Source: Lenzites betulinus (lineage: Eukaryota > Basidiomycota > Agaricomycetes > Polyporales > Polyporaceae). Taken from it: a DNA stretch of 64,000 nt. The notes under the pieces are model-generated. The model did not search any database, was not told where the DNA came from, and saw nothing but the letters and a program-made list of their open reading frames with translations. A program made the translations under genes and the position numbers. The DNA is taken from contig JABYQU010000016.1 in NCBI GenBank assembly GCA_022264855.1, positions 496,001 to 560,000 of the forward strand, in the 5' to 3' direction. How positions within the stretch are numbered: the first letter of the stretch is position 1; every line of letters begins with the position of its first letter. Below, piece after piece: positions 872-18,184 of this stretch.

Positions 872-1907
872 ATGGCAGGCCGCGCCGTCACCCTCCTCTG
901 CGCTCTCTTGCCAGCAGCCGCATCTGCATACTCTCATACACACCCTGTTCTTGCCTGGTCATCTCACTAGTACGTCGTTATTCCTACAGGCTCATACTGG
1001 CGCATTCAGCTAATAATGTGTACAGCTCGAAGACCTTGTCGTCTCCCAGCATTGCACACGGACAGAAGGCTGATTCGCATGCTATTTCCAGCGCACTCTA
1101 TGCCGGCGACGATATTTGCGACCACGATGCGGTCGTTGTGATTGACCACGCCGGGGTGAGTACATGCTTGTGCATGCCTTATCCCGCCGCGCTGACTTGC
1201 CGCACTCGCCAGATCCACGCCTCGGACCTCCGCGCTCTGGAGCCTTCTTGCCATGTAGCAAAGGCGCTTTCCAGTGCGCCTTCTTCCCTGAAACTGGCCT
1301 ACGTCGAAAGTAGCGACCACCACGCAAACCCGTTCCATGACCTCGCAAATAACGTCGCGAAACGCTGCGGTTCGCGTTCAGTGAGCCATTCACCAGACCT
1401 CGGAGATCTGGACGTCGACTCCGGGAAGGGCAGGCACGTTGTTTCCATCTCCCTCCCTGCCCTCGAGGATGGCGAGGAAGGCGCGTCAAGGAAGAACAGC
1501 ATGGCCGCGCACCGTAGGTGGCCCATGAAACTTTAGCACAGTACCGGAGCTCAGATGTTTCTCCCGCAGAGTCGTGGCTGTCAGAAGAACTTTCCAAAGT
1601 CGAGGCCGCGTTCTCTAACTACCTGGTGATCTACTCCGGCTCGCCCGTTTCGCTCTTGCACAGCCGCCAGTCCACCTCCTCGTCCACCTTCGACGCCGCA
1701 GCGGCACCGGACGACTCCACCGTGTCCGGTGGAATCCTGAAGCGATACCAACTCCTCACCCCCGGCCTCATTCTCGCGCTGCTCGTTGCCCTCTTCGTCC
1801 TCCTGCCGGTCGTTTTCATTGGCGTTCAGGCGCTGGCGAGCATTCAATCACCGCTCACGAATGACATTCCGAAAGGGTTTAACGCGGAGGAGAAGAAGAA
1901 CCAATGA
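872..1907 (+). CDS. big1: BIG1-family ER membrane protein (V-ATPase assembly / cell-wall glucan)
   Basis: Four exons (872-969, 1026-1155, 1213-1513, 1570-1907) give about 288 residues. The start encodes a secretory signal peptide (MAGRAVTLLCALLPAAASA), followed by the mature N-terminus HTHPVLAWSS, which is typical of Big1/Voa1-like proteins. A single C-terminal membrane segment (PGLILALLVALFVLLPVVF) is followed by a short lysine-rich tail ending KKNQ, a dilysine-like cytosolic end that fits ER retention. In yeast, Big1 is an ER type I protein needed for normal beta-1,6-glucan levels and is related to the V-ATPase assembly factor Voa1. For the last intron, the acceptor at 1569 gives a normal 56-nt intron in frame; an acceptor at 1536 would also keep frame but makes an implausible 23-nt intron. 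The 3' part of the last exon is duplicated at 7853-8134. Confidence 0.88.
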
Positions 1908-2750
1908 GTTGGCCTTCGTCGGGGCGCATGTACGAACCCGGACTGTTATTTCATCCTTTTCAGTCGTGACCGAGGCCACCTGCATGATGCAGTGCGGTAT
2001 GCCAGACCGATGTTCGAAAGGATGTGAGTGGCGAATACCTGAAATACACCACGGATCTTGGCGTGCATATTTCATGTTGCTGTCGCTGTTCGTGAAGAGT
2101 TGATTCTAGTTATCCGCGGACGGGCCGATGTGTGGCAACTGTGTTAAGAAAAGTTATCTCGCTGATCTTTTGACAGCATGGAAGCTCTCAGCTGCGTCCA
2201 CCGCGTGTAAGTGGCTTGCCTCGACGAAATCGCGAGGCGCTTGGAGCCCAGGATCAGTTGCCGGTACCCTCGGAACACTCTCGTGGTGAGTACGTTACAT
2301 TCACCGCTAGGTCGTAGCATCCAGCACCAGAAAGGTATGATGCCTGCTCGAAGAGCTTTTTGCAGTACCACCAGTCGATCGGAGCGACCTACCACGCCAG
2401 CTGAAGACCCGACGGCGATAATAAGGGCCCAATTCGACAGTGCAAGCAGGTATGTCTTATAGCGCACCCATAACACCCGTTTCCTCACCTTTCTCTCGGC
2501 TCGATCCGGCTATCAGCTTCCATGCTTTGTTGAAAGGGGGCATGCATGTCGCACATCGTCCTATACCATGACTGCGGAGCCGCAGCCCGTGTGCCGCCGT
2601 TGCGCTCCCAGTGATACATTCGACTCGGGGCGAAGTGCGTTCGCAGTTGTGTTCGTTTCCGAATCCGACGAGATTCGACAGAACACCTGTGTGAAGGAGT
2701 TGGCGAGCTAGACAACAACGCGGACTAGGTGAGGGAGGTACCGAGGCCTG
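1908..2750 (+). other. Intergenic segment, duplicated downstream
   Basis: No gene was recognised between BIG1 and EF-hand copy A. The segment is a diverged copy of 8135-8868: the two share short blocks such as CACCTGCATGAT just after the BIG1 stop, CATGTCGCACAT near 2546 and 8683, and the leader block CACACAAGGTCT. It therefore belongs to the tandem duplication and probably contains the copy A promoter. Confidence 0.6.
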
Positions 2751-2756
2751 TATATA
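2751..2756 (+). promoter_or_regulatory. TATA-like box of EF-hand copy A
   Basis: TATATA lies 87 bp upstream of the ATG at 2838, matching the position of the TATAAA in front of copy B. The common leader word CACACAAGGTCT follows both boxes. This is inferred from position and from conservation between the copies. Confidence 0.5.
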
Positions 2757-2837
2757 GCTCTGAGGGGTAGGATATACTATGAGAACAAGATACGAGCAGG
2801 CATCCCCTACACTCACACAAGGTCTTACTTTCGCGAT

Positions 2838-5800
2838 ATGTTAGCGACTTCCCGTCCACTACCAATGCCTCCTTCACCCAGCACGTCAGACCGGACATTG
2901 CAGGAACCACAGATCACTATGGCTGAAATGACTGACGACACCATCGAGCAACCGCACGAATCCCTTGGTGAGTCGTTGAGGTGCTATTGCAGACTTATTC
3001 TGAGCAAATTCGTAGAACGGCTGGAGCCAAAGGCTGAGAACGAGATCGAGGAAGTTGGCGAACTGCTGAAAGAACTGACATGTATGCACTTCGCACACCA
3101 CGAAGTCTTGGAGATATTAAATTTACTGACCGCCTCTGGTAGCGCTACATGGCGCAGCCGAGCTCGAAGAGGTGGCGAAGAAGCTTGTCGAAGGCGTAAG
3201 CAACGTCTTGGAATATCTCGGAGCAGTGTCGGAGATCCATCCTATCGCAGCAGTAGGTTATACATTAACTCCTGTCGGTGCCGTCGCTCACGCATCTGCA
3301 GATCGTGGTCGGCGCCCTTACTGTATGTCAAACATTCACATAAGCCACATCCTTGTACCTCGGATACTGATACAGCTGCCATTGTTGCAGGCGGTGGTCA
3401 ACCTGGAACTGCAGCGGCATGAGAACGATGCACACATTGTTGTCGTGCATGCCACCATGGTGGGTAATGACATCGGGATTCTCAATACGCACTACCTGAC
3501 AAGGCGTTGTCGTACTAGGTCAAGACTGTCTACCACATTCGGTTTCTCACTCGCATTCAGACCAAGTTCGAGGAAGAGCTTGAAGAGCGACTGAATGTCA
3601 TTTTTAATCACATGGTTAACACAATTCGCGAGTTCGGCAAGTATCATCTTTCCCAACGCCACGATGGCTTTCTAACAGCGGTGATCCTGCAGGAGGGTTT
3701 GTCGAGTATGTGTGCGTTACGGGGTCATTGTACTGGGGCTAACTCGGACCTGTCTGTCTAGCGCATACCATGCCTGTTGGCAGAAGACGTGTACGTCGAT
3801 CTTACTCGGTGGTGAGAATAAAGCACAACTAACCCTTCCACAGACAAGGTCCTATTCTCACACGCACACAAGAAGAAGCTAGAACACTTCAGCAACCGCT
3901 TTCAGCAGCACAGGGAAGACCTTGACGAGATGAGGAAGACCATGACTCAGGTACAGCTAGCATCGGTGTTCGACAACACCGAGGAGATCCTGCGAAGACT
4001 TCGCGTCGTCGATCCGGATGTCGAGAAGGCCGAGGCGTTCCTACGTGAGAACGGTGGCGCAGACATGGTTCGGATGGTATGTGTATACCGAGATGCTATA
4101 TGATGCTATATTGCCCGGTATGCTGACGTCGGTACGGCGATGCAGAACCCTGCACTGGTGGAACAAGTGGCCGCTATACTACATGAGAAAGCAACTGCGG
4201 GGATGAAGGAAACCCTACGTCAAGGCTTTGACGATCTCCTTGAGAAGCACACGTATGTATCTTTCGCTGATCGCTGTTTGAGCTTAGCTTACGCGGCAAC
4301 TCGTGCTGTAGCGCGCGCTACCTTAAGAAGCTGGAAAGTGTCCAAGACGCCGTTATCACCTCCGTGAAAGCTGCACAGTCAGCAATTATTGAACGCGTAC
4401 GCACTACATGGATTATCTCACCGGTTGACTGCTCATGCAACGATCCGGCGCAGCTGAACGAAGGCCCTCATGAGCTCATTGAAGACGAGGAAATCAGGAC
4501 AATCTGGGAACGTGAGTGTCCGACGTTGAAATGCATGTATTAGGGCTAATAGTCACCACAGAAAACGTACGTTGGTTCTGGTCGTATACATTCGTTCATT
4601 CACTTATTCTGCCGCCGAACGTCGCTCAGCGATGGAAGTCAAGTGTCAAGTGCAGGATATTCGTGGAAGGTGGGATTTGAACCCGAATACCTCAATTCCA
4701 CCTCTGACGTACGGATGGTGTAGGTTTACATGAGCACTACCAACGGGAGTTCCTCAAGCAGCGCTCCCCGGTGCCACATAAAGATGCCTGGACGTTAGCC
4801 TTCTTCTCCAGGGTCATGTGTAAGATAACAGGGCTCATTCCGCTGAACTAGTATATCTTACCGTTCATAGATCATTCGGCTATTGGGGATGTTGTCGACG
4901 ATGACGGCAGTGGGTACATATCGGCTTCGGAAGTGAACGACTTCATCTCCGAGCAGAGAAGCCTGGCGTATTGGACAAAGCCCGAGTGGTTCGCATTGTG
5001 AGATTTCTCATTTTGCCGACCCTTCTATCGCTGATCGAGATCGTAAGTTGGGCCTGCGGGTGGTACAACAACAACGCATGGTAATTGCTGTCATAAAGCG
5101 GCAGGAATATGGCCATCATTGATACTCCCGACTGCAGGTACTACCGTCGGATCAAGCATATCGTTCAAGAGACAGAGAAGTCTATCTACGCTGTCCGTCC
5201 AGAGGAGCGCCACGGCTCCTGGCACACACTCCAAGTCATCATCAACTCATTGAAGCCACTCGTGCTCGTCGCGGACGTCGAGGACTTCTCTGGTACTGTC
5301 AAGGTGCCTCATCAGCTCCGTCGCCTACAGGTTGAATACAGAGCGTACGAGGAGAAAAAGATCGAAGGAAATTTGGCCCATTTCAAACATCATCTCAATG
5401 ATAGGCCCTCTCTCAATGCTGCCGTGGGCGATAGTCGTGTCGAACTGGTGAGGGTGTATAAGTCCAGTGCCGCCGTATAAAGCTCATGTCGGCATTTGCA
5501 GCACATGATGCCTCTTCTCTATATCCTCATGATCAACCTTCAAGAGACGGTCGGCAATATCACGAAAGCGCAAAAGATCGAGGACTCGGATCTGATTACG
5601 ATCGAGGAACTAGCTACTTCGTGCATCGCCGTCTTTGTGGCATTCGAGGACCGCATGCGGGATTTGGTTCGAGGCTGGCGGTTCGAGGGCAAAGACATCG
5701 ACATGCAAGTTGATCGCTATGCGGACGGCCTGTTCAGAAAGTTCTATCGCGAGGTAGGTCGTTGAGTCGTTAACACAAAAAGGTGGCTTCTGACCGTCGA

Positions 5801-6271
5801 CACATGACAGACACATGTATACCAGCAAGCGTACGACGCTCTCCGCGGCTGCATTTTCGGCAGTACACATACTCTTCCTCGCCCTCTGAGGCCGTTCGAA
5901 GCGTCGACGTACCGCAGGCATGCCTTTGAGGTTTGTACTTCATGTTCACGTAAGCGATGCGGGAGAACCTGCTGAATACATGCTTGAAGGGCGAACATCT
6001 GGTCCGCGAGGTCGCAGCGCTATCGGAGAGAGTGAAGGCGCTCGAGACTCGCCTTGCTGCACCTGCGACCGGGCAACCCTCCGAGTCAAACTCAAGAGCT
6101 TCGACGCCATCAGGCCTGGACGAAAACACCGCTCACTCTGCACCGGCCCTCCATCCCGACAAAGAATGCAAGGATCAGGCCCCATCTCCTGCAGGCTCGA
6201 AGACGCATACCAGAGAGAATGTCTTCCGGCGGCTGAAGCGGCGGTTGGCCCACTGGTTTTCGTCTACTTGA
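2838..6271 (+). CDS. EF-hand domain protein, tandem copy A
   Basis: A multi-exon gene (about 17-18 exons) encoding roughly 750 residues, which splices into one open frame. From the N-terminus it has a helical region with LEEVAKKLVEGVSNVLEY and EIHPIAA, then VVNLELQRHEND, then CWQ, then a coiled region around NTEEILRRLR. One canonical EF-hand loop (DDDGSGYISASE, near residue 400) has ligands at positions 1, 3, 5, 7, 9 and 12. A conserved helical C-terminal half (YNNNAWYYRRIKHIV, YADGLFRKFY) ends in a polar tail with a coiled segment. The intron after EFG (donor at 3637) is GC-AG. A 5-nt microexon lies at 4562-4566, and an extra 57-nt intron (5081-5137) is absent from copy B. The ATG at 2919 is an alternative start. 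Such proteins are found in Agaricomycetes; their function is unknown to me. Calcium binding is predicted from the loop. Confidence 0.82.
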
Positions 6272-6956
6272 CCGCCCTCGTAGCATGTGAGATCTATGTA
6301 CTTTGCAAGGAACGTGCCAGACCTAACCGCTATCATATTCTCCTAGCGCATTGTCCTTCTCACGTATACGACAACGCTCCCACAGCATTCCATCACCTGA
6401 CACTCCGATATAGTATATGACCATCCCCACCGAGTATAAGGCTCTGTCCATGGGCATGGCGGCAAGCCAGCTGCCACCGTTGGTAACTTGCCGGCACCTC
6501 GCGGATATGAAAGATCGGGAGTTAACCCGTGCCGCAAGATCCCAGGATACTGTTTGTTTTCGTGTATGGCTGTCAATGATGCAGGCGTGCACCGAGTACA
6601 CGATGTTGGTCCACACAACGCGGATCTAGGGCCCGCCTCGCGCCTTCCGCCATGTCCCCGGCATGCGGCCAGGAGCGGCTTCCTTGACGGTCTACCACAT
6701 ACGTTTTGCTGTACTTCTACCTGTACATCAGGCGAGGTTCTTACCCTTTCCTTTGACGGTGGACGCGCAGCCTCTCAGCTGCATAGTGTCGGCGTGTGTC
6801 TACGCATCTCCGCCAGCAATGCTCGCAGGTCGGCGGGCGAACACGCCCATCGACTACGGTCCTGAGAGCACTGCTCTTTGAACGCCGCGAACATACAAAG
6901 GCCGCCTTGCATCAGGAACCCTAGCAGCGGTCTTCCCCACTTCCTCCGCTGCTATC
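6272..6956 (+). other. Intergenic, no gene recognised
   Basis: This is the 3' flank of EF-hand copy A. Just after the stop, the word GCATGTGAGATCT recurs after copy B (near 12276), so homology between the two units extends about 30-40 bp past the stop codons. The remainder, up to the third paralog fragment, shows no convincing exons on either strand. Confidence 0.5.
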
Positions 6957-7371
6957 ATGGCTGTCGGCGGCACAACGACGTTGCTGAACACGATCTCTTC
7001 TTATATTCCCGGCTCGTACCCTGATGGTGGGTCTGCGCAGCAGACGATGGTCAACAAGATCAAGGACACAATACGTGCGTATTGCATATGTCCCTTGACG
7101 CGAATATGAGCACTAACGCAATTATCATGATGCTGAACAGACCGACTCAAACCAATCGCCGAGCGCGATCTAGAGGAGGTCACTCGCCTGCTCCATGACA
7201 TATCTTGTGGGCTGCATCAATATCCAACGACATACCTTTTCTGAACCGCCAATTTCTAGATAACCACATCAAGGAGGAAGTCAATGAGATGGCAGGCCGT
7301 ATCATGCGAGGCGCGATTTTTTTTTTTCGATTTCGTCAAGAATGTCGCGCAACTACATCCCGCTGCTCAGG
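6957..7371 (+). pseudogene. Truncated third paralog of the EF-hand gene family
   Basis: Exon 1 starts at ATG 6957 (MAVGGTTTLLNTISSY) and ends in a phase-1 GT donor at 7075. Exon 2 begins after ACAG at 7140 and encodes RLKPIAERDLEEVTRLLHDIS, the counterpart of RLEPKAENEIEEVGELLKEL in copy A and of RLERDAETDIAQVDQML in copy B. Exon 3 encodes HIKEEVNEMAGRIMRGA and then, in another frame, DFVKNVAQLHPAAQ, the counterpart of the EIHPIAA segment. The frame break falls at a run of 11 T (7317-7327) where 10 would keep frame. No later exons follow, so everything after exon 3, including the EF-hand, is missing. It is most likely a relic of a third tandem copy. A transcribed short peptide cannot be excluded. 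Confidence 0.75.
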
Positions 7372-7852
7372 TACCGGGTAGATTGATGCTTCCTACCCGC
7401 CATATTGAATAGTATTGCTTCAATATGTTTCAGTAGCAAGCTCAGCAGTATATAGCGTGTATCACCGCATGTACGGCCCGATAGATTCGAAAGTTGTGCG
7501 TATGTGACCGTGCTATAAATCGACTCAGGAGGGTATATGGTGAATTGGCAAAGGTGGGTGCAACACTATCATCGATGATCCAGGGCTCGTGCATGATCGA
7601 TGATCCATGAGAGCTAACCATCGAGATGTGGCAGGCAAAAGAGACACGGAGATGAGAAAGTGTACTGGCATGATGCGCGGCACAAGTCGGGTTCTTCGAC
7701 TTATTAGTATAAGCGCTGTAGTGCGCTTGTGTGGCAACGATCGGCATACGGTTCGAGTGAGTGAGTGCGTGAATATTCGTCCAAGTGCCAGCGTACAAAC
7801 TCCGAGCTTGTTCCCTCCGACCATGACTCAGTCACTCCGACTCGGAGTCTAG
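7372..7852 (+). other. Intergenic, no gene recognised
   Basis: A stretch between the truncated paralog and the BIG1 fragment. It contains a short direct repeat, ATCGATGATCCA, twice within about 40 bp (near 7571 and 7596), and no exon I can support. It spans a junction of the rearranged region. Confidence 0.45.
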
Positions 7853-8134
7853 GTTGCGTCCTCCAACTACCTGGTGATCTGCTCCGGCTTCCCCGCGTCG
7901 CTCTTGCATTGCCGCCAGTCCACCATCTCGTCCACCTTTGACAGTGCAGCAGCGCACCAGAAAATTTCACCAACTCCTCGGCCCCGGCCTTATTCTCGCG
8001 CTCCTCGTTGCTTGCTTCGTCCCGCTTCTCGTCGTTCTGGTAGGCGCCCAGGCGTTAGCCAGCGTTCAATCGCCGTGCGGCGCTCACGAATATTTGGCGT
8101 CCCGAAGGGCTTTAGCGTGGAGAAGAACCAATGA
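7853..8134 (+). pseudogene. Broken copy of the 3' end of BIG1
   Basis: The nucleotide sequence closely follows the last exon of BIG1 (about 1610-1907), beginning near AACTACCTGGTGATCTGCTC and ending in the same AAGAACCAATGA. The membrane segment is still readable (PGLILALLVACFVPLLVVL), but it lies in a different frame from the upstream part (YLVICSGFPASLLHCRQS). A deletion near 7954 removes most of the DDSTVSGG region, and an insertion follows QSP. There is no signal peptide and no upstream exon. It is the upstream edge of the tandem duplication that carries EF-hand copy B. Confidence 0.88.
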
Positions 8135-8868
8135 TTCGGCCTCCTGTATGTACGCCGTACGAAATCAGGTGGTTATCTCATTCTCTACGTCGAGGCCCAG
8201 GCCACCTGCATGATCATGACCGGGTGCAACGGTTGCCCAAAGGGGGCTAACACGGTGGGGGTGGCCGCACATTCCACCGAGTTGTTGCAGCCCCGGGCCG
8301 TGAACAGTCCTTTCCAATTATCCGTAGCGACTGTTTTCTCGCTGCTCTGTCAACACCTTAGTTCTTTTCGGGTTTGTTTGCCATGTGTACAGGCCTCGCA
8401 TCCACCACCCAGCTCGCAATGTTCCGCGCGCAGAATCGGAAGCACACCTTTGGTAAGCACAATAAAGCTGCAGCTAGAATGTCCCTAATCTCGTAATCCC
8501 TTGCGCAATTCTACGTGTTGGCTAGACCATATCATGCGTTTCCGACTGAAGATTGGTGCTGATAATTCAGGTCATGACAGCGCGAGCAGGTGCGTTATGT
8601 TACACAGTCATTGCACTGATGGATCCTCGTTTCGGTCCACTTATCAGCGCTGCAGCTTCCAGGTTGATGAAGGGCGACATTCATGTCGCACATAGTTCAA
8701 TTCTCGTGGCGTTATCCGAAACCACAACGCAACTGAGCGTCAGACGGCGCCATTGTGCACTTCAAGCTATACATTTGCACAGAGCCACTTGTGCTCGCAC
8801 TTGTGGACGTTGCTAAATTTGGCGGCAGTCCACCACACACAGATGTAAAGGAGGTTCCGCAGACTGCA
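8135..8868 (+). other. Intergenic segment homologous to 1908-2750
   Basis: A diverged copy of the BIG1-to-EF-hand spacer, with no gene recognised. Conserved short words appear in the same order as in the first unit, so this is probably the copy B promoter region. Confidence 0.55.
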
Positions 8869-8874
8869 TATAAA
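8869..8874 (+). promoter_or_regulatory. TATA box of EF-hand copy B
   Basis: TATAAA lies 60 bp upstream of the ATG at 8929, at the place that corresponds to the TATATA of copy A. The leader word CACACAAGGTCT follows. Confidence 0.55.
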
Positions 8875-8928
8875 GCCGCACAGTGTAAAGACGAATCCCA
8901 CATCCACACAAGGTCTCGCCTCCGTGCA

Positions 8929-11900
8929 ATGCACAGTATCTCGCAAACACCCCCGACTTTTCTTTCACCACAGACAGCACAGATAACCATGACCGCCGAA
9001 ACTGCACACCAATCCCTTAGTCAGTCACAAACACATCACACATAACTTATGCTGAACAGCCCTGCAGACCGACTAGAGCGCGACGCTGAGACTGATATCG
9101 CCCAAGTCGATCAAATGCTGGAGGCCCTTAAATGTACGTGTCGTGGAGGCCCTCTTGATAGCAGTGGTGGTGATTCTTCCATTAACCACCATCAGCAGCA
9201 CAACATCATGCTGCGCAGGTCGCAGAGATCGCTCGAAAGCTCGTCGGGGGTGTCAGCCACGTCCTGGAGTATCTCCAAATAGTGGCTCAGATACATCCCA
9301 TCGCAGGAGTAGGTTACATATCCGTGTCTCGTGTTAATCCCTCCGCTTATGTATCTACAGATCGTCGTCGCCGCCCTCAAGGTATATCCAGGTACTGGGC
9401 CCAATTGCCTTTTGAATGTTAACACGCATACCACATGACATGCAGAAAGTAGTCAGCTTGGAAATCCAGCGACACGAAAATAAAGCGCAGATCGCCGTAG
9501 TGCATGCCACAATGGTGAAAGCACGGTTTACAACAAATAATACATACCGACTGACGAGTTGCTCTTGCAGGTGAAGACTGTCTTCCAAGTCCGTTTTCTC
9601 GCTCGTTTTCAGAACAAGTTCGAGGACGACCTTGATAAAGAACTCAAGACCATTTTCACCAGTATGGGCAATACTATGTCTGATTTCGGTACGGTCCATT
9701 CATAACAGCGTTGTGACCAGATGTTTTTGACACTTGATACATTACAGGTCACTTCGTCGAGTAAATCTACTTATCATGTCTGCATTTCGCCGCTGCTGAC
9801 GCGCGCCCATCATTCAGGACATACAATACCTGTTGGCAGAGGACCTGTGCGTCTATCCACACTCTGATTTACTTCTAGACTCACACTTTCGCAGATAAAC
9901 TTCTTTTCTCTGATACTCACAAGAAGGAGCTGGACTTCTTCAGCAAGCGCTTCCATCAGCAGCGAGAAGAACTCGATGAAATAAGCAAGACCATAATGGA
10001 AGTGCAACTGGCATCGGTGCTCGAGAACACCGAGGAGATCCTCCAGAAACTCCGAGTCAACACCGTCGATCCCGACGTCGAGAAGGCCGAAGCGTTCGTG
10101 CGCAAAAATGGCGGCGCCGACGTTGTTCGAATGGTACGTATGACGCCCTGAAATACGCGTATGTTGTCGAGGACGCTAACGTATATACACTACAGAACTC
10201 CAACCTGGTGGATCAAGTAGCAGCCATGCTACACGAGAAGGCAACCGCCAGCATGAAGGAAACTCTGCGTCTGGGTTTCGACGACCTTCTCGAGAAGCAC
10301 AGGTACGTAGCATTCGTTAATCCATGACTTCAGCTTTGGCTCATACCTGATTCAGCGCCCGCTACCTCAAGAAGCTGGAGAGCGTCCAGGACGGTGTCAT
10401 CGCGTCTGTCAAGGTTGCAGAGTTGGCGATTATTGAACGTGTACGCACTACACGATTCATCTCACCGGATGGCCACTCACGCACTGGGGTCTCGTGCAGC
10501 TGAACGATGGTCCTCATGAGCTGATTGAAGACAGCGAAATTCGCGCAATCTGGGAACGTGAGTGCTCGACCACTACGACATGTCTATCAAGGCTAACATC
10601 CACTACAGGAAACGTGGGTTGATTTTGATCGAATTCGTTCTTTCCATTCACTCATACTATGCCGTCGAACGTCACTCAGCGGTGGAAGTCCAGCGTCAAG
10701 TGCAGGATTTTTGTGGAAGGTGAGTCTTGAACCTGGCGAGTCGCCCTCGAATTAGACCTTAAATTCTTGGATTGCGCAGGACTACACGAACACTACCAAC
10801 GAGAGTTCCTGAAGCAGCGTTCTCTGTTGCCACACAAAGACGCCTGGACGTTAGCGTTCTTCTCTCGGGTCATGTGTAAGACAGCAGCGCCCATTTTGCT
10901 GGACTGCCAAGAGCCTGATTATCCGCAGATCACTCGGCTATCGGGGACGTCGTCGACGATGACGGAAGTGGGTACATATCTGCCTCGGAGGTGAATGACT
11001 TCATCTCAGAGCACCGAAGCGTGGCGCAATGGACAAAACCTGAGTGGTTTGCATTGTGCGTCTTCTCCGTCGAGTAAGATGTTCCATCGCTGACCGACAT
11101 CGTAGTTGGGCCTGCGGCTGGTACAACAACAATGCATGGTACTATGGTCGGATCAAGCACATCATTGAAGAAGCGGAGGAGTCCATCGTCGGAATTCAAG
11201 CAGGGGAGAGCGAGGGCTCTGGCGACCTACTCCGAGTCATCCTCAGCTCTCTGAAGCCGCTTGTGCTCGTTGCGGACGTCGAGGATTTCTCCGGTACGCT
11301 CAAGGCTCCCCACCAGCTACGTCGCCTGCAGGAAAAGTACAGAGCGTACGAAGAGAAGAAGATCGAAGACAACCTCATCCACTTCGAAGATCACCTCAAC
11401 GACAGAGCCTCTCTCAACGCTGCTGTAGGTGATAGTCGCGTCGAACTCGTGAGCATTTTTGCGACTGGCTACCGATATGTAGAGTTCACCTATACATTTT
11501 TAGCACATGATGCCACTTCTCTATATCCTCATGAAGAGACTGCAAAAGACCGTCGGCAATATCACGAAGACGAAGTTCATCTCGGGGTCAGATCTGATCA
11601 AGATCGAGGAACTGGCTACCTCGTGCATCGCTGTCTTCGTAGCATTCGGGGACCGCATGCAAGACTTGGTTCGAGGGTGGCGATTCCAAGGCAAGGACAT
11701 CAATAAGCAAGTCGATCGCTATGCGGACGGGTTGTTCAGAAAATGCTACGGCGAGGTGAGTGGCTAGGTATCCGACATATGTATTACTCTGACTTTCTAC
11801 GCGCGACAGACATATGTGTACCAACAAGCATACGACGCCCTATGCAAGTGCATTTTCGGCAGCAACCCTACTATTCCCCGCCATCTGAGGCCATTCCAAG

Positions 11901-12196
11901 CATCGATGCACCGCAGACGTGCCTCGGTTCGTACATCCAGCTTAGCTGTCCGATCCACGCGAATCTGACCAATACATGCTTGACAGAGCGGATATCTTGC
12001 CCGCGAGGTCGCAGGGCTATTGGAGAGAGTGAAGGCACTCGAGGCACAGCTTGCTGCCGTGCAACCTTGCGAGCCAACCTCGAGGTCTCCGTCGGTGGCG
12101 AGCGACAAGGCATCTACGCATCATGGAGCTCATCCGCATATCGGGAAGATGTTGGACGGATTTCACTCCTTGCTGGGCCCCTTCGACCACAAGTAG
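8929..12196 (+). CDS. EF-hand domain protein, tandem copy B
   Basis: Paralog of copy A with the same order of exons and intron phases, giving about 733 residues in one open frame. Conserved blocks are RLERDAETDI, VSHVLEYLQIV, IHPIAG, LEIQRHENKAQI, CWQRTYKLLFSD, VEKAEAFVRKNGGAD, the EF-hand loop DDDGSGYISASE (about residues 391-402), WACGWYNNNAWYYGRIK, VADVEDFSG and YADGLFRKCY, with a C-terminal coiled segment (LLERVKALEAQLAAV). The 5-nt microexon GAAAC at 10609-10613 is needed to hold frame and has introns of 51 and 66 nt around it. The intron found at 5081-5137 in copy A is absent here. The start at 8929 was chosen because it follows the TATA box; ATG 8989 is in frame and possible. Single predicted calcium site; function unknown. 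Confidence 0.84.
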
Positions 12197-12789
12197 CGCA
12201 ACCTGAATGAGGCCTTCCATGGGCACAAGGGGCAGTTTGTCCCATAATTTCCGTCCGCTTGACTGAAGTCGTGGCATGTGAGATCTTCGTATTGACCCAG
12301 AAACCCGTCAAATTCGAATGACATTGATGTATTAGCCTCAGATTCTGATTCTACATCTTGTATACAGACACACTTCACTTCAATCTATCGGTACATCGGC
12401 ATGTTCGTGGGAATCGCCGACTGGCGCTGTGGCATAGCTCAACACTCAGAGGGACTCGGATCGGCCTGATCGTCTCGATAGATGTCATACTAAGGCTTCA
12501 GCTTCAAGCTTCAAACTCCGAACGTTGGGACCAGAAAACCATTACAATGATACCAGCAAGTGGTATGGTATCACAGCGCGAAGACATAACTATCGTTGTG
12601 ATCATAAGGTACGTAACATGTAGCCCGATGCGTGAAAGTCCAAGTTGATCAATGTCCTATATCAGTCCATGTGCCCCAAATCCAAGTCCGTGAACGAGTA
12701 AACGCAGTCGCTCAAAGCGTTCCAACACTACTGTGTCACAGGGTGTAATCAGTCCCATACCGCCACGACCAGCAACATCAACACCTACC
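12197..12789. other. Intergenic, no gene recognised
   Basis: Convergent gap between EF-hand copy B (+) and the first cerato-platanin gene (-). It presumably holds both 3' UTRs. No supported exon or repeat was seen. Confidence 0.5.
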
Positions 12790-13212
12790 TCAGAGCCCGC
12801 ACTGGGACGCAGCGACCTGGGTCGCCTGGACGTCCACGCTCCCCAAGAAAGTCGCCTGGTTGTTCGTCAAGGTGTTCATCGCCTCCAACGACAGGTTGAA
12901 CCCGTCGTCCGCATGGTCGATCGCGAGCACGTTGATGCTCCGCCCATTGTACGTGAGCTGCCAGCAGGAGCCGCACGCGGGGGAGTTCCACCCGCCCACC
13001 GCGGCCGCGCCGCCGACGTTCGGGAAGCTGGGGAGCGAGCCTGCGGTGGTGAAGCCCTTCGTCTGCAGCCCGTTCGCGCCGTCGGAGCATGCGGTCGCGC
13101 CGAGGTCGAGTGCGGCGTTGTCGTACGTCATGTCGTACGAAACCCGGACAGCGAGGGCGGCGGGGGCGAGGGCGAGGGCAAGCACGGAGAGGGCGAAGGT
13201 CTTGAACTGCAT
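12790..13212 (-). CDS. Cerato-platanin family secreted protein 1
   Basis: A single-exon gene of 140 residues. The signal peptide (MQFKTFALSVLALALAPAALA) is followed by the mature start VRVSYDMTYDN. The family motifs CSDGANGL, CGSCWQLTYNGRSI, NVLAIDHADDGFN, LSLEAMNTLT and the terminal QVAASQCGL are all present, with the four conserved cysteines that form two disulfides. Cerato-platanins are small secreted double-psi beta-barrel proteins that bind chitin oligomers and act at the fungal surface or as elicitors in plants. A TATA box sits 104 bp upstream of the ATG. A second gene of very similar sequence lies at 16605-17021 on the same strand, with an acyl-CoA dehydrogenase gene between them. Confidence 0.96.
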   Translation of the reverse strand: MQFKTFALSVLALALAPAALAVRVSYDMTYDNAALDLGATACSDGANGLQTKGFTTAGSLPSFPNVGGAAAVGGWNSPACGSCWQLTYNGRSINVLAIDHADDGFNLSLEAMNTLTNNQATFLGSVDVQATQVAASQCGL

Positions 13213-14416
13213 GGTGGTGGTGGGGAACGGTTGAAGACGTGGAAGGTCGTAAGAGGAGTGAGGTTGGTGTGGAAGTGCGAGTGTTCACTGCTGTCTGCTC
13301 GGGGCATATTGACCTCTTTTATATCTGCAGGATGCACGGGCAACACATCCCTGTCCGCGCACAACGAGCGGTGTGGACGGCCACGGGGAGAACAGCACCC
13401 GGCTAACGCGTAGCGGCACGGACCGCGCAGGATCGCGCAGGTTGGCTATGTCGCGCTCCGTCTCATCGGTCTGCGAGGCCGATTCGCTTTTATTATTGGT
13501 AGTTCCCCGCCTTTTCTCCGCCCTGTGTGCTGAGTGGAATACTGCATTGCCTAGCTTTAAATCAGTACGAAGTACCCTGTGACTAAAAGTTGTAGTTATC
13601 CTGCTGACCTTAGTTCGTTGTCATGTCAGGGTCTTGACAATCGAAAACCCTCGACCTCCACGTACCATCATAGGACATATCATGGCCTTCTGTATGCATC
13701 TCGTGTATAGCGGCCTGTCGCCACCGGTCCAACTCACACAACCGGCGAACCGCCGGTCTTTACTGGATGTACGTAAAGTACGCCGCTCAAGTACTAACCT
13801 GTCTTCTCGCCGTAGAAATCCCTGGACAGCCGTATGATTAACGTAAGCTTGCCACGCACGCTAGACCTTGCTGGCGTTTTACCAGAGAGCTCACGCGTCA
13901 CTTGCAGCTCACTGTCACCAACGACGCTGTTGCTTGCCTCCGCGACGGTCAGCGCGAGCAAAGGCACAAATAAGCCTTCGAGCGAGTTTGACTGCGGTGG
14001 CTTCTGAGTCCGTAGCAACGGCCATGCCTCCCAAGTGCATCACGTCCCACTGTCTCTCTTCTTCCGCGGCGCGGGTCCTTTACGGCGAAACGGACTCTCT
14101 CGGACGGATGCGACCCCGGAGCGCGTTGTTGTATTCATGTGTCTCAAGTTTCAAGTTCAAGTCAGCGAGACCACGCGAAGGGCAGGTGTATGTGTGACGA
14201 GCGCATGCGAGGCTCGAGCGGTGAGTCGAACGCAGTGGCCGGTCTGGTCATCGCTTAAGATGCCTCCTTTTCCTATAAAGACAACTTGAATCGCCGGTCG
14301 GGTCTGTTTGCAGTGTAATCCAAAAGCTAGCGATGTTGAGATCCGGGTAACGGCTGTCGTTCTACATGTCGTTGTAATACTATGCAAAGTACCACTCAGC
14401 GACATTATATGAGCAT
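13213..14416. other. Intergenic, cerato-platanin 1 promoter and ACAD 3' flank
   Basis: About 1.2 kb without a supported gene. The first 110 bp hold the cerato-platanin 1 leader and TATA box. The rest shows only short unconserved open frames on both strands. Confidence 0.5.
13316..13323 (-). promoter_or_regulatory. TATA box of cerato-platanin 1
   Basis: TATAAAAG on the minus strand, 104 bp upstream of the ATG at 13212. The second cerato-platanin gene has a TATAAATA at nearly the same distance (110 bp). Confidence 0.65.
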
Positions 14417-16604: not shown

Positions 16605-17021
16605 TTACAGTCCACACTGGGACGCAGCGACCTGTTTCGCCGTGGCGTCGATCCTGCCGAGGAACACGCCCTGGTTGTTCGTGAGCGTGTTCATCGCCTC
16701 GAGGGCGATGTTGAACCCGGCGTCGGTGTGGTCGACGGCGAGGACGTTGATGCTCTTGCCGTTGTACGTCAGCTGCCAGCACGACCCGCAGTTGGGCGAG
16801 TTCCACCCGGCGACGGCTGCAGCGCCACCGATGTTCGGGAAGTGCGGGAGCGATCCAAACGTGGAGAAGCCCTTAGTGAGCAGTCCGTTCGGGCCGTCCG
16901 AGCACGCGACCGTGTGCAGGTCGCCGCTCTTGTTGTCGTACGTCTGGTCGTATGATACGGTCACGGCGAGCGCGCTCGAGACGAGGGTGGTGAGGGCGAG
17001 GATGAAGGTGGTGAACTGCAT
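16605..17021 (-). CDS. Cerato-platanin family secreted protein 2
   Basis: A single-exon gene of 138 residues, clearly paralogous to the gene at 12790-13212. The signal peptide (MQFTTFILALTTLVSSALA) is followed by VTVSYDQTYDN. The motifs CSDGPNGLLTKGFSTFG, CGSCWQLTYNGKSI, NVLAVDHTDAGFN, EAMNTLTNNQ and QVAASQCGL are conserved, with four cysteines at the same positions. Differences from copy 1 are concentrated in the signal peptide and in surface stretches such as DNKSGDLHTVA. A TATA box lies 110 bp upstream. The arrangement suggests a local duplication that either spanned the acyl-CoA dehydrogenase gene or was later separated by it. Confidence 0.96.
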   Translation of the reverse strand: MQFTTFILALTTLVSSALAVTVSYDQTYDNKSGDLHTVACSDGPNGLLTKGFSTFGSLPHFPNIGGAAAVAGWNSPNCGSCWQLTYNGKSINVLAVDHTDAGFNIALEAMNTLTNNQGVFLGRIDATAKQVAASQCGL

Positions 17022-18184
17022 GGCGAGGAGGTTGGGTAGGAGAACGCGGGGAAGGTGCGTATGCGAGTGAAGCTGATGTGTTTGCTAGACCTGTGGGTCA
17101 CTGCTGGTCTTACATCGTCTTCGTCCCTCGTATTTATACCTCAACAGTCCGTGGGGCGGGGCAACGGCGTCCGTCGTCCATAACGGTCCAAGACCTGTCC
17201 AGAGGTCACAAGAACGTCTGCCATAGGTCGAGCCATGTGCGCCGAGACCATGTAAGGATGTAGAATGTCCGTGCCCTCCAGAACGAAAGCCCGAGCAGAG
17301 CGTTGGGGTCTTCCGAGGCCTCATGGGACCGACTTGCGGCCATGTCAACTCCGTCTGGGCGCACAGCAAACGTCGCGGATCAGAACGCGACGTCATGTAG
17401 AGTCGGCCGAGCGTCCGCTCCTGCATGAACGAATAGCTCAGCCATGCGTACAGCTTCGATAAAACTGGATGTGTAACCTCACTTACCAAACTCTGGAGCA
17501 CTGTCAAGATCCTAGGCTTCAAAGGAAGCCTTACAACTCTCTACAGTCTTCAGCAAAGTATGCGATAGGTACTCAATCCTCGGCCTCCAACGCCTGGAAC
17601 GTTCTCGTCGAGAGGGCCTCATTGGCCTGACGTGAGAACCGGCATCAGCAGACCGACCCCCCGTGGACGGCCACAACGAGAAATCCTCTGACTGATTGCG
17701 GATCTCAAGGGCGAGCGGCGGCGGTCCTGTGAGAGAGGCACAATACGCCGGGAACCAGGCCCGAACGGCTGTACTGCTCCAGTGTAAGCAATTACCATTC
17801 AATACGTACCTGCTCCATCTCCGGAAACCCAAAGCCGTTGAGCTCGGGGAAGTGAGCGGGAGGCCTGCAGAGGCCGTGGGCGCGGCCAGTCTGGCAAACC
17901 TCCCGCCGGCGAGCTAGAACGTGATGCATGGGCCGGCAACAGTACAGGTAATTACATGCGGCATCGAGGCCGTACGACTACGTACATTAGATGCAGTGTG
18001 AGATCTTCAGATGTTACATGAGACGAGAGAGCATGCACGACGATGAGACAGGGAGGGAATATGCTGAGACGTCCGTGACTAATAATATACACACTACATG
18101 GTAACGGGCCAAGTTCAAATACAAAAAGCAAGTAAAAACCAGAGGGAGATGTAGAAACGGGATTCAGGCGCGAGGCGAAGCCTC
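17022..18184. other. Intergenic, cerato-platanin 2 promoter and MED13 3' flank
   Basis: About 1.16 kb with no supported gene. It contains the cerato-platanin 2 TATA box and leader, then unconserved open frames, then the region just after the MED13 stop codon. Confidence 0.5.
17131..17138 (-). promoter_or_regulatory. TATA box of cerato-platanin 2
   Basis: TATAAATA on the minus strand, 110 bp upstream of the ATG at 17021, matching the layout of the first cerato-platanin gene. Confidence 0.65.

What the first reader, a model, noticed from the sequence alone, without database searches (positions are those of the whole stretch)
1610..12300. Tandem array of an EF-hand gene family built by duplication that captured part of BIG1
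Two full genes (2838-6271, 8929-12196) and their upstream spacers are homologous unit by unit. The second unit begins inside a copy of the last BIG1 exon (7853-8134 matches about 1610-1907). Homology stops 30-40 bp past both gene ends. A 4.4-4.7 kb segment running from the BIG1 3' end to just past the EF-hand gene was therefore duplicated in direct orientation. The broken BIG1 end dates and marks the junction. This is the accessory part of an otherwise conserved window.
Basis: partly seen in the sequence, partly recalled or inferred. Interest (0 to 1): 0.75.

Follow-up and report, generated by a model that had tools for sequence, protein, structure and literature searches.

The report
Duplicated fungal EF-hand gene beside BIG1
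A wood-decay fungus carries two diverged, apparently working copies of a calcium-binding-type gene, the second with a broken tail of the neighbouring gene BIG1 in front of it, in a small gene cluster that also holds the stump of a third relative; this is ordinary gene birth and death.

Summary
Window 1598-6313 matches 7846-12304 in one continuous direct diagonal (65%, 4829 columns), from inside the last BIG1 exon to just past the EF-hand gene. Both genes have open spliced frames (767 and 732 aa), dN/dS is about 0.17, and the BIG1 copy is a frameshifted fragment. The contig matches Lenzites betulinus. At 35% divergence an assembly artefact is very unlikely.

The interpretation needs three corrections. 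(a) The gene-1 position is not accessory: a family member and BIG1 sit on contigs of equal length in 14 of 22 other assemblies with a hit. (b) The 'spacer' holds the 5' stump of a third, older family member, close to a Trametes gibbosa protein (52 of 56 compared residues). (c) The duplication probably predates the L. betulinus/T. gibbosa split (99/93 support; AU p 0.033), with gene 2 fast-evolving.

Best reading: an ordinary DNA-level segmental duplication in a small BIG1-linked birth-and-death array. What the family does is untested. Low interest.

The parts
872..1907 (+). BIG1 gene (288 aa, exons 872-969, 1026-1155, 1213-1513, 1570-1907), intact
   Evidence: spliced frame; best database hit T. 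gibbosa P0029, 88% over 100%; Ac45-VOA1 TM domain 23.6 bits, below its cut-off of 25, in the last exon
1598..1907 (+). end of the last BIG1 exon: start of the duplicated segment (source copy)
   Evidence: start of continuous diagonal
1908..2837 (+). BIG1-gene 1 spacer with presumed promoter (TATATA at about 2751, CATGTCGCACAT at 2545-2556)
   Evidence: aligned to 8135-8930, score 983 vs shuffles 547 sd 31; 12-mer found twice in the window, expected 0.01; TATA read
2838..6271 (+). gene 1: EF-hand family, non-B type ('A'), 767 aa; 5-nt exon 4562-4566, GC-AG intron 3637-3692, extra intron 5081-5137
   Evidence: spliced model without stops; 87% to T. gibbosa P0001 over residues 330-620
6272..6313 (+). 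3' flank of gene 1: end of homology with unit 2
   Evidence: 42 columns, 69%
6957..7370 (+). relic of a third family member, subfamily B: exons 2-3 (7141-7206, 7260-7370) and a presumed exon 1 (6957-7074, frame and splice site only); frameshift around T tract 7317-7327; later exons not found
   Evidence: tblastn with T. gibbosa P0017 E 1.1e-12; genome search 91% over residues 2-24; exons read
7755..7811 (-). short end of a dispersed repeat family, perhaps a 5'-truncated retroelement with a short tandem-repeat tail
   Evidence: 13 further places in the genome at 86-94%; copies share this end and differ in length
7846..8134 (+). BIG1 tail fragment (pseudogene): pieces in two different frames, no start
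   Evidence: genome search with BIG1 protein finds residues 187-224 (71%) and 225-272 (63%) here; frames
8135..8928 (+). copied spacer and presumed promoter of gene 2 (CATGTCGCACAT at 8682-8693, TATAAA at about 8869)
   Evidence: TATA placement read
8929..12196 (+). gene 2: second A-type gene, 732 aa, matches database protein P0002 (C2E23DRAFT_121211)
   Evidence: zero distance to P0002 in the quick tree
12197..12304 (+). 3' flank of gene 2 up to the end of the duplicated segment
   Evidence: exon alignment

Best explanation
The locus is a small BIG1-linked birth-and-death array of a polypore gene family with one canonical EF-hand loop. An ancestral order BIG1 - gene A - gene B existed. A DNA segment from inside the last BIG1 exon to about 40 bp past gene A was copied in direct orientation to the far side of gene B, probably before L. 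betulinus and T. gibbosa separated. The copied BIG1 tail had no start and decayed; the copied gene A (gene 2) took its own promoter copy, kept its reading frame under purifying selection, and changed faster than gene 1. Later, in the L. betulinus lineage, gene B was cut to its first exons and a frameshift arose. Shown: the duplicated segment and its bounds, open genes, dead BIG1 tail, B relic, linkage by equal contig length. Inferred: order of events, ancestral gene order, copying mechanism (unequal exchange or break repair). Biochemistry, most likely: a helical protein with a pair of EF-hand-like elements, one of them canonical, that binds calcium; inferred from motif and model only.
For: Continuous diagonal. 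All 19 introns of gene 2 have a counterpart in gene 1, which has one more, so DNA-level copying, not retroposition. dN 0.19, dS 1.09, ratio 0.17, at most 0.36 in any of 7 parts. In a substitutions-only simulation of gene 1, the frame stayed open in 19, 2, 0 and 0 of 1000 runs at 0.05, 0.1, 0.2 and 0.3 changes per site. BIG1 tail distance 0.25 is a little under half of the intron and spacer distance 0.60, roughly as expected if mainly the fragment evolved freely. Gene 1 pairs with T. gibbosa P0001 (99/93), gene 2 outside with a 0.45 end branch against 0.084 (0.13 to the same fork) for gene 1; joining gene 1 and gene 2 costs 8.8 log units, AU p 0.033. B relic: 52 of 56 compared residues identical to T. 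gibbosa P0017 (52 of 59 if the 3 at the T tract count as mismatches), and P0017, P0001 and a BIG1 lie on contigs of the same length. EF loop pattern in 28 of 30 rows. Helix-strand-helix pair at P0002 residues 308-342 and 366-389.
Against: The AU result is marginal, gene 2 is a long branch, and I had seen a quick tree before the test. In the BIG1 fragment one residue is shared with T. gibbosa and another with L. betulinus, so the short fragment does not settle the date. No gene 2 ortholog was seen for T. gibbosa (search with gene 1, length-limited), which requires a loss, a missing annotation or a later duplication. No DNA of relatives could be read, so ancestral order is inferred. dS near 1 is close to saturation. 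Gene 1 and P0002 stay below the Pfam EF-hand cut-off (12.8 and 12.6 against 25.9 bits), and Foldseek found no reliable fold match.
Confidence: 0.78

Rival explanations
1. A larger unit, BIG1 tail - gene A - gene B, was duplicated by unequal crossing-over; the second B was then deleted completely and the first B partly.
For: Puts the BIG1 tail directly after a B gene in one step; A and B types lie on contigs of equal length in T. gibbosa, T. polyzona and Cubamyces lactineus.
Against: Only weak, scattered matches to family proteins between 12197 and 12790 (best E 0.029 for a 594-base target) and no spacer homology beyond about 12304, so a deletion starting at the end of the gene A homology is needed.
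Confidence: 0.3
2. The duplication is recent and specific to L. betulinus; gene 2 only looks old because it evolved fast.
For: No gene 2 ortholog seen for T. gibbosa; gene 2 is a long branch; one residue shared between the BIG1 fragment and L. betulinus BIG1.
Against: Introns and spacer are only about 58-59% identical and 4-fold sites differ at 125 of 239; gene 1 pairs with T. gibbosa at 99/93, AU p 0.033.
Confidence: 0.2
3. Assembly artefact (haplotypes or collapsed repeats).
For: Nothing beyond the general risk in repeats.
Against: Copies are 35% different, with different flanks and one different intron; the protein collection holds gene 2 as an L. betulinus record.
Confidence: 0.01
4. A transposable element carried the segment to its new place; the repeat end at 7755-7811 is its border.
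For: A dispersed repeat end lies 35 bp before the BIG1 tail.
Against: The 13 other places look like one shared end with variable length, as in truncated retroelements; whether any carries host sequence was not tested. The 12190-12795 stretch matches nothing else in the genome. A later independent insertion is simpler.
Confidence: 0.04

Closest known systems
Tandem or segmental duplicates that hitch-hike a truncated neighbouring gene
   Same: Direct orientation, partial neighbour at the unit start, working copied gene, dead partial copy (general knowledge, not from a call)
   Different: An older family relic and a short repeat end lie between the units, so it is no longer strictly head to tail
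Uncharacterised EF-hand domain-containing proteins of Polyporales (for example Trametes cinnabarina P0012, so named by UniRef)
   Different: Two A-type copies at the L. betulinus locus
Independent family duplicates in Trametes elegans (P0006, P0015) and T. polyzona (P0021, P0028)
   Same: Extra copies on contigs of the same length as that of BIG1
   Different: Different duplication events in the tree; whether a BIG1 tail is there is unknown

Membership tests
Segmental direct duplication | Continuous homology over genes, introns and spacer in one orientation | tested here: met
Segmental direct duplication | Introns kept at matching positions (not retroposed) | tested here: met
   19 of 19 introns of gene 2 match; one more in gene 1
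Segmental direct duplication | Units directly adjacent (strict tandem) | tested here: not met
   1532 bp between the units, with a B relic and repeat end
EF-hand proteins | Canonical 12-residue loop pattern (pattern recalled) | tested here: met
   28 of 30 rows, misses P0015 and P0028
EF-hand proteins | Pfam curated cut-off | tested here: not met
   EF-hand_5 12.8 and 12.6 bits against 25.9 for gene 1 and P0002; 12 of 28 members match EF-hand_5 at E 0.1 or better, best 0.00061
EF-hand proteins | Paired helix-loop-helix fold | tested here: inconclusive
   Two helix-strand-helix elements in the model (mean pLDDT 77); no reliable fold match
EF-hand proteins | Calcium binding | not testable with these tools
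   needs protein
BIG1 / V0 accessory subunit Ac45-VOA1 family | Gene 872-1907 matches family proteins | tested here: met
   166 homologs, many of the 120 listed named Protein BIG1; the fragment at 7846 lacks start and single frame

The most novel reading that the evidence does not exclude
A polypore-restricted calcium-binding-type family has stayed beside BIG1 while copies were repeatedly born and lost there, which would make the BIG1 flank a lasting duplication hot spot, or the linkage itself functional; in L. betulinus gene 2 has taken a new role.
Probability: 0.12. Interest if true: 0.4.

Novelty: new member of a known kind. Interest (0 to 1): 0.2.

Why it matters
It is a clean example of gene birth and death: a conserved neighbour gene, a hitch-hiked neighbour tail that serves as a near-neutral clock, an asymmetric surviving duplicate, and a recently broken older relative at the same spot. 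It overturns no known principle.

Tried and rejected
Searching for a subfamily B remnant downstream of gene 2 (12197-12790), which would show that unit 2 landed inside gene B: only weak scattered matches, best E 0.029; among them a 13-residue match of the gene 1 C-terminus at about 12406-12444 (69%, E 0.11), taken as chance. Homology between 6272-6900 and 12196-12790: 416 against a shuffle mean of 383 (sd 29, largest 443), so nothing clear beyond the shared 36 bp. Plain DNA alignment of the B relic to the genes: 532 against 435 (sd 27, largest 503) for gene 1, and 447 against 409 (sd 31, largest 487) for gene 2, so weak or absent at DNA level; the case rests on the protein matches. A genome search with gene 1 did not report the relic. 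Treating 10609-10719 as one exon gave two stops in gene 2; rejected in favour of a 5-nt exon because P0002 and 11 other of 28 proteins have the same compact junction. Retroposition: rejected by shared introns. A Helitron-like end at the junction: considered from a near-palindrome next to 7846 (by eye), not supported by the repeat copies. Looking for truncated family proteins (about 193-615 aa): only P0016 and P0021, both already known. Fold search gave nothing usable. Five paper searches: I saw listings and starts of abstracts only, 20 of 165 papers; none of the listed rows describes this locus or family, and searches returned 0 papers. The first own-genome pattern search was poorly chosen and told only the window's place.

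Full report
What is there. The window is C17:496001-560000 of a 37.4 Mb, 108-contig genome. Contig C17 has 603,630 bases, the length given for the contig of database protein P0002, Lenzites betulinus C2E23DRAFT_121211, and P0002 has zero distance to gene 2 of the window in a quick tree. L. betulinus is a polypore (Polyporaceae).

The duplication. A loose self-comparison of the first 24 kb shows one direct, continuous match, 1598-6313 against 7846-12304, 65% over 4829 columns. With stricter scoring three pieces of it remain. The spacer between BIG1 and the gene alone scores 983 against 547 (sd 31, largest 636) for 100 base shuffles. Aligned columns are 79% identical in the BIG1 part, 75% in exons, 58.5% in introns and 58.6% in the spacer. 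A 12-mer, CATGTCGCACAT, occurs exactly twice in the 64 kb, at 2545 and 8682, expected 0.01. The duplicated segment is 4716 bp in unit 1 and 4459 bp in unit 2.

The genes. Gene 1 (2838-6271) encodes 767 aa in 21 exons and gene 2 (8929-12196) 732 aa in 20 exons. All 19 introns of gene 2 have a counterpart in gene 1, which has one more at 5081-5137. Both models contain a 5-nt exon (4562-4566, 10609-10613). Reading through instead gives two stops in gene 2. The same compact junction is in 12 of 28 database proteins, P0002 included. dS is 1.09, dN 0.19, ratio 0.17 over 724 codons, and none of 7 parts exceeds 0.36. If gene 1 is mutated at random (substitutions only), 19, 2, 0 and 0 of 1000 copies stay open at 0.05, 0.1, 0.2 and 0.3 changes per site; the copies' intron distance is about 0.60, so the open frame of gene 2 is evidence of selection. 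Gene 2 stops earlier than gene 1, and its 3' flank aligns to the last codons of gene 1.

The BIG1 tail. BIG1 itself is intact at 872-1907. The copy at 7846-8134 has residues 187-224 in one frame and 225-272 in another. Its distance from BIG1, 0.25, is a little under half of the intron and spacer distance, 0.60, roughly as expected if mainly the fragment evolved freely and BIG1 was held back. The genome search with BIG1 reported six matches, all at this locus.

The missed part. Between the units, 6957-7370 holds the start of a third family member. T. gibbosa protein P0017 matches it with E 1.1e-12 in a 2.7 kb target, and a whole-genome search with P0017 finds 91% over its residues 2-24 (E 3.3e-4); a genome search with gene 1 did not report it, and at DNA level it barely exceeds shuffles for gene 1 and not for gene 2. 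Exon 2 is 66 nt long as in genes 1 and 2. Exon 1 rests on an open frame and a splice site only, since P0017 is a partial record. The frame breaks in exon 3 around an 11-T tract. After splicing, 52 of 56 compared residues equal P0017; three residues at the T tract were left out, and 52 of 59 is the figure if they count as mismatches (first residue counted as a mismatch). Later exons are not found in the spacer. P0017 belongs to subfamily B, a fully supported clade of 6 proteins that excludes genes 1 and 2. Further right, 7755-7811 is the end of a dispersed repeat with 13 other places in the genome; copies share this end and differ in length, which looks like a 5'-truncated retroelement. It may have come later.

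History. In a careful tree of 28 rows (P0002 and P0013 dropped as near copies), gene 1 pairs with T. gibbosa P0001 (99/93), gene 2 is the next branch (100/99) and T. polyzona the next (97/93). Forcing gene 1 with gene 2 loses 8.8 log units, AU p 0.033. The duplication thus probably predates the split from T. gibbosa and follows that from T. polyzona. This is not strong: gene 2 is a long branch, no T. gibbosa ortholog of gene 2 was seen, and the BIG1 tail shares one residue with T. gibbosa and one with L. betulinus where the two differ. The B relic is close to T. gibbosa B, so it probably broke after the split.

Linkage. Of 22 other assemblies with a family hit, 14 have a BIG1 on a contig of exactly the same length among the 120 listed of 166 BIG1 hits: T. 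gibbosa, T. maxima, T. sanguinea FKP32, T. polyzona, T. elegans, T. cingulata, T. punicea, T. meyenii, T. cinnabarina, Pilatotrama ljubarskyi and Cubamyces sp. BRFM 1775, each with a non-B protein; T. cubensis and T. pubescens, with a B type only; and Grifola frondosa, with an outer type. For the other 8 no BIG1 on such a contig was listed; for Dichomitus squalens the listed BIG1 bears another assembly's name prefix. Gene numbers are consecutive in T. cinnabarina (g261, g262) and nearly so in T. pubescens (13819, 13821) and T. cubensis (g172, g175); in G. frondosa they are 22 apart. Equal length is a proxy for the same contig, not a reading of it. A family gene is therefore a conserved neighbour of BIG1, and unit 2 is the accessory part. 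T. elegans has two A-type and T. polyzona two B-type proteins that are each other's nearest, so copies arose more than once.

What the protein may do. Each gene has one canonical EF loop; the recalled pattern is met by 28 of 30 rows. Gene 1 and P0002 stay below the Pfam EF-hand cut-off. An AlphaFold model of P0002 (mean pLDDT 77) is nearly all helical, with two helix-strand-helix elements at 308-342 and 366-389, the second holding the loop. Solved structures offer no convincing relative by sequence (best E 0.07) or fold (best E 0.29). Calcium binding is the likeliest activity and is unproven.

Verdict.

Noticed in passing
4562-4566 and 10609-10613: A 5-nt exon between two short introns, in both gene models and, judged by the compact junction, in 12 of 28 database proteins; several other annotations differ at this spot. 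In gene 1 the following 63-nt intron is open in frame, in gene 2 the 66-nt one has two stops.
   Followed up: partly
7755-7811: End of a dispersed repeat family with a short tandem-repeat tail, 13 further places in the genome, some copies over 99% identical across about 890 bp.
   Followed up: partly
12790-13284 and 16605-17084, minus strand: Two cerato-platanin genes (73% DNA identity over 485 bp) flank what looks by eye like an acyl-CoA dehydrogenase gene: another local duplication beside the array (the dehydrogenase name was not tested).
   Followed up: no
5081-5137: Intron in gene 1 absent from gene 2; gain or loss not decided.
   Followed up: no
L029, L030, L031: Distant partial relatives of the family at C91, C1 and C76: matches to about the first third of the profile in C91, and to about the EF loop in the other two.
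   Followed up: partly
2838-6271 and 872-1907: Neither gene 1 nor BIG1 of L. betulinus appeared as a record among the listed hits of the protein searches, although gene 2 did.
   Followed up: no
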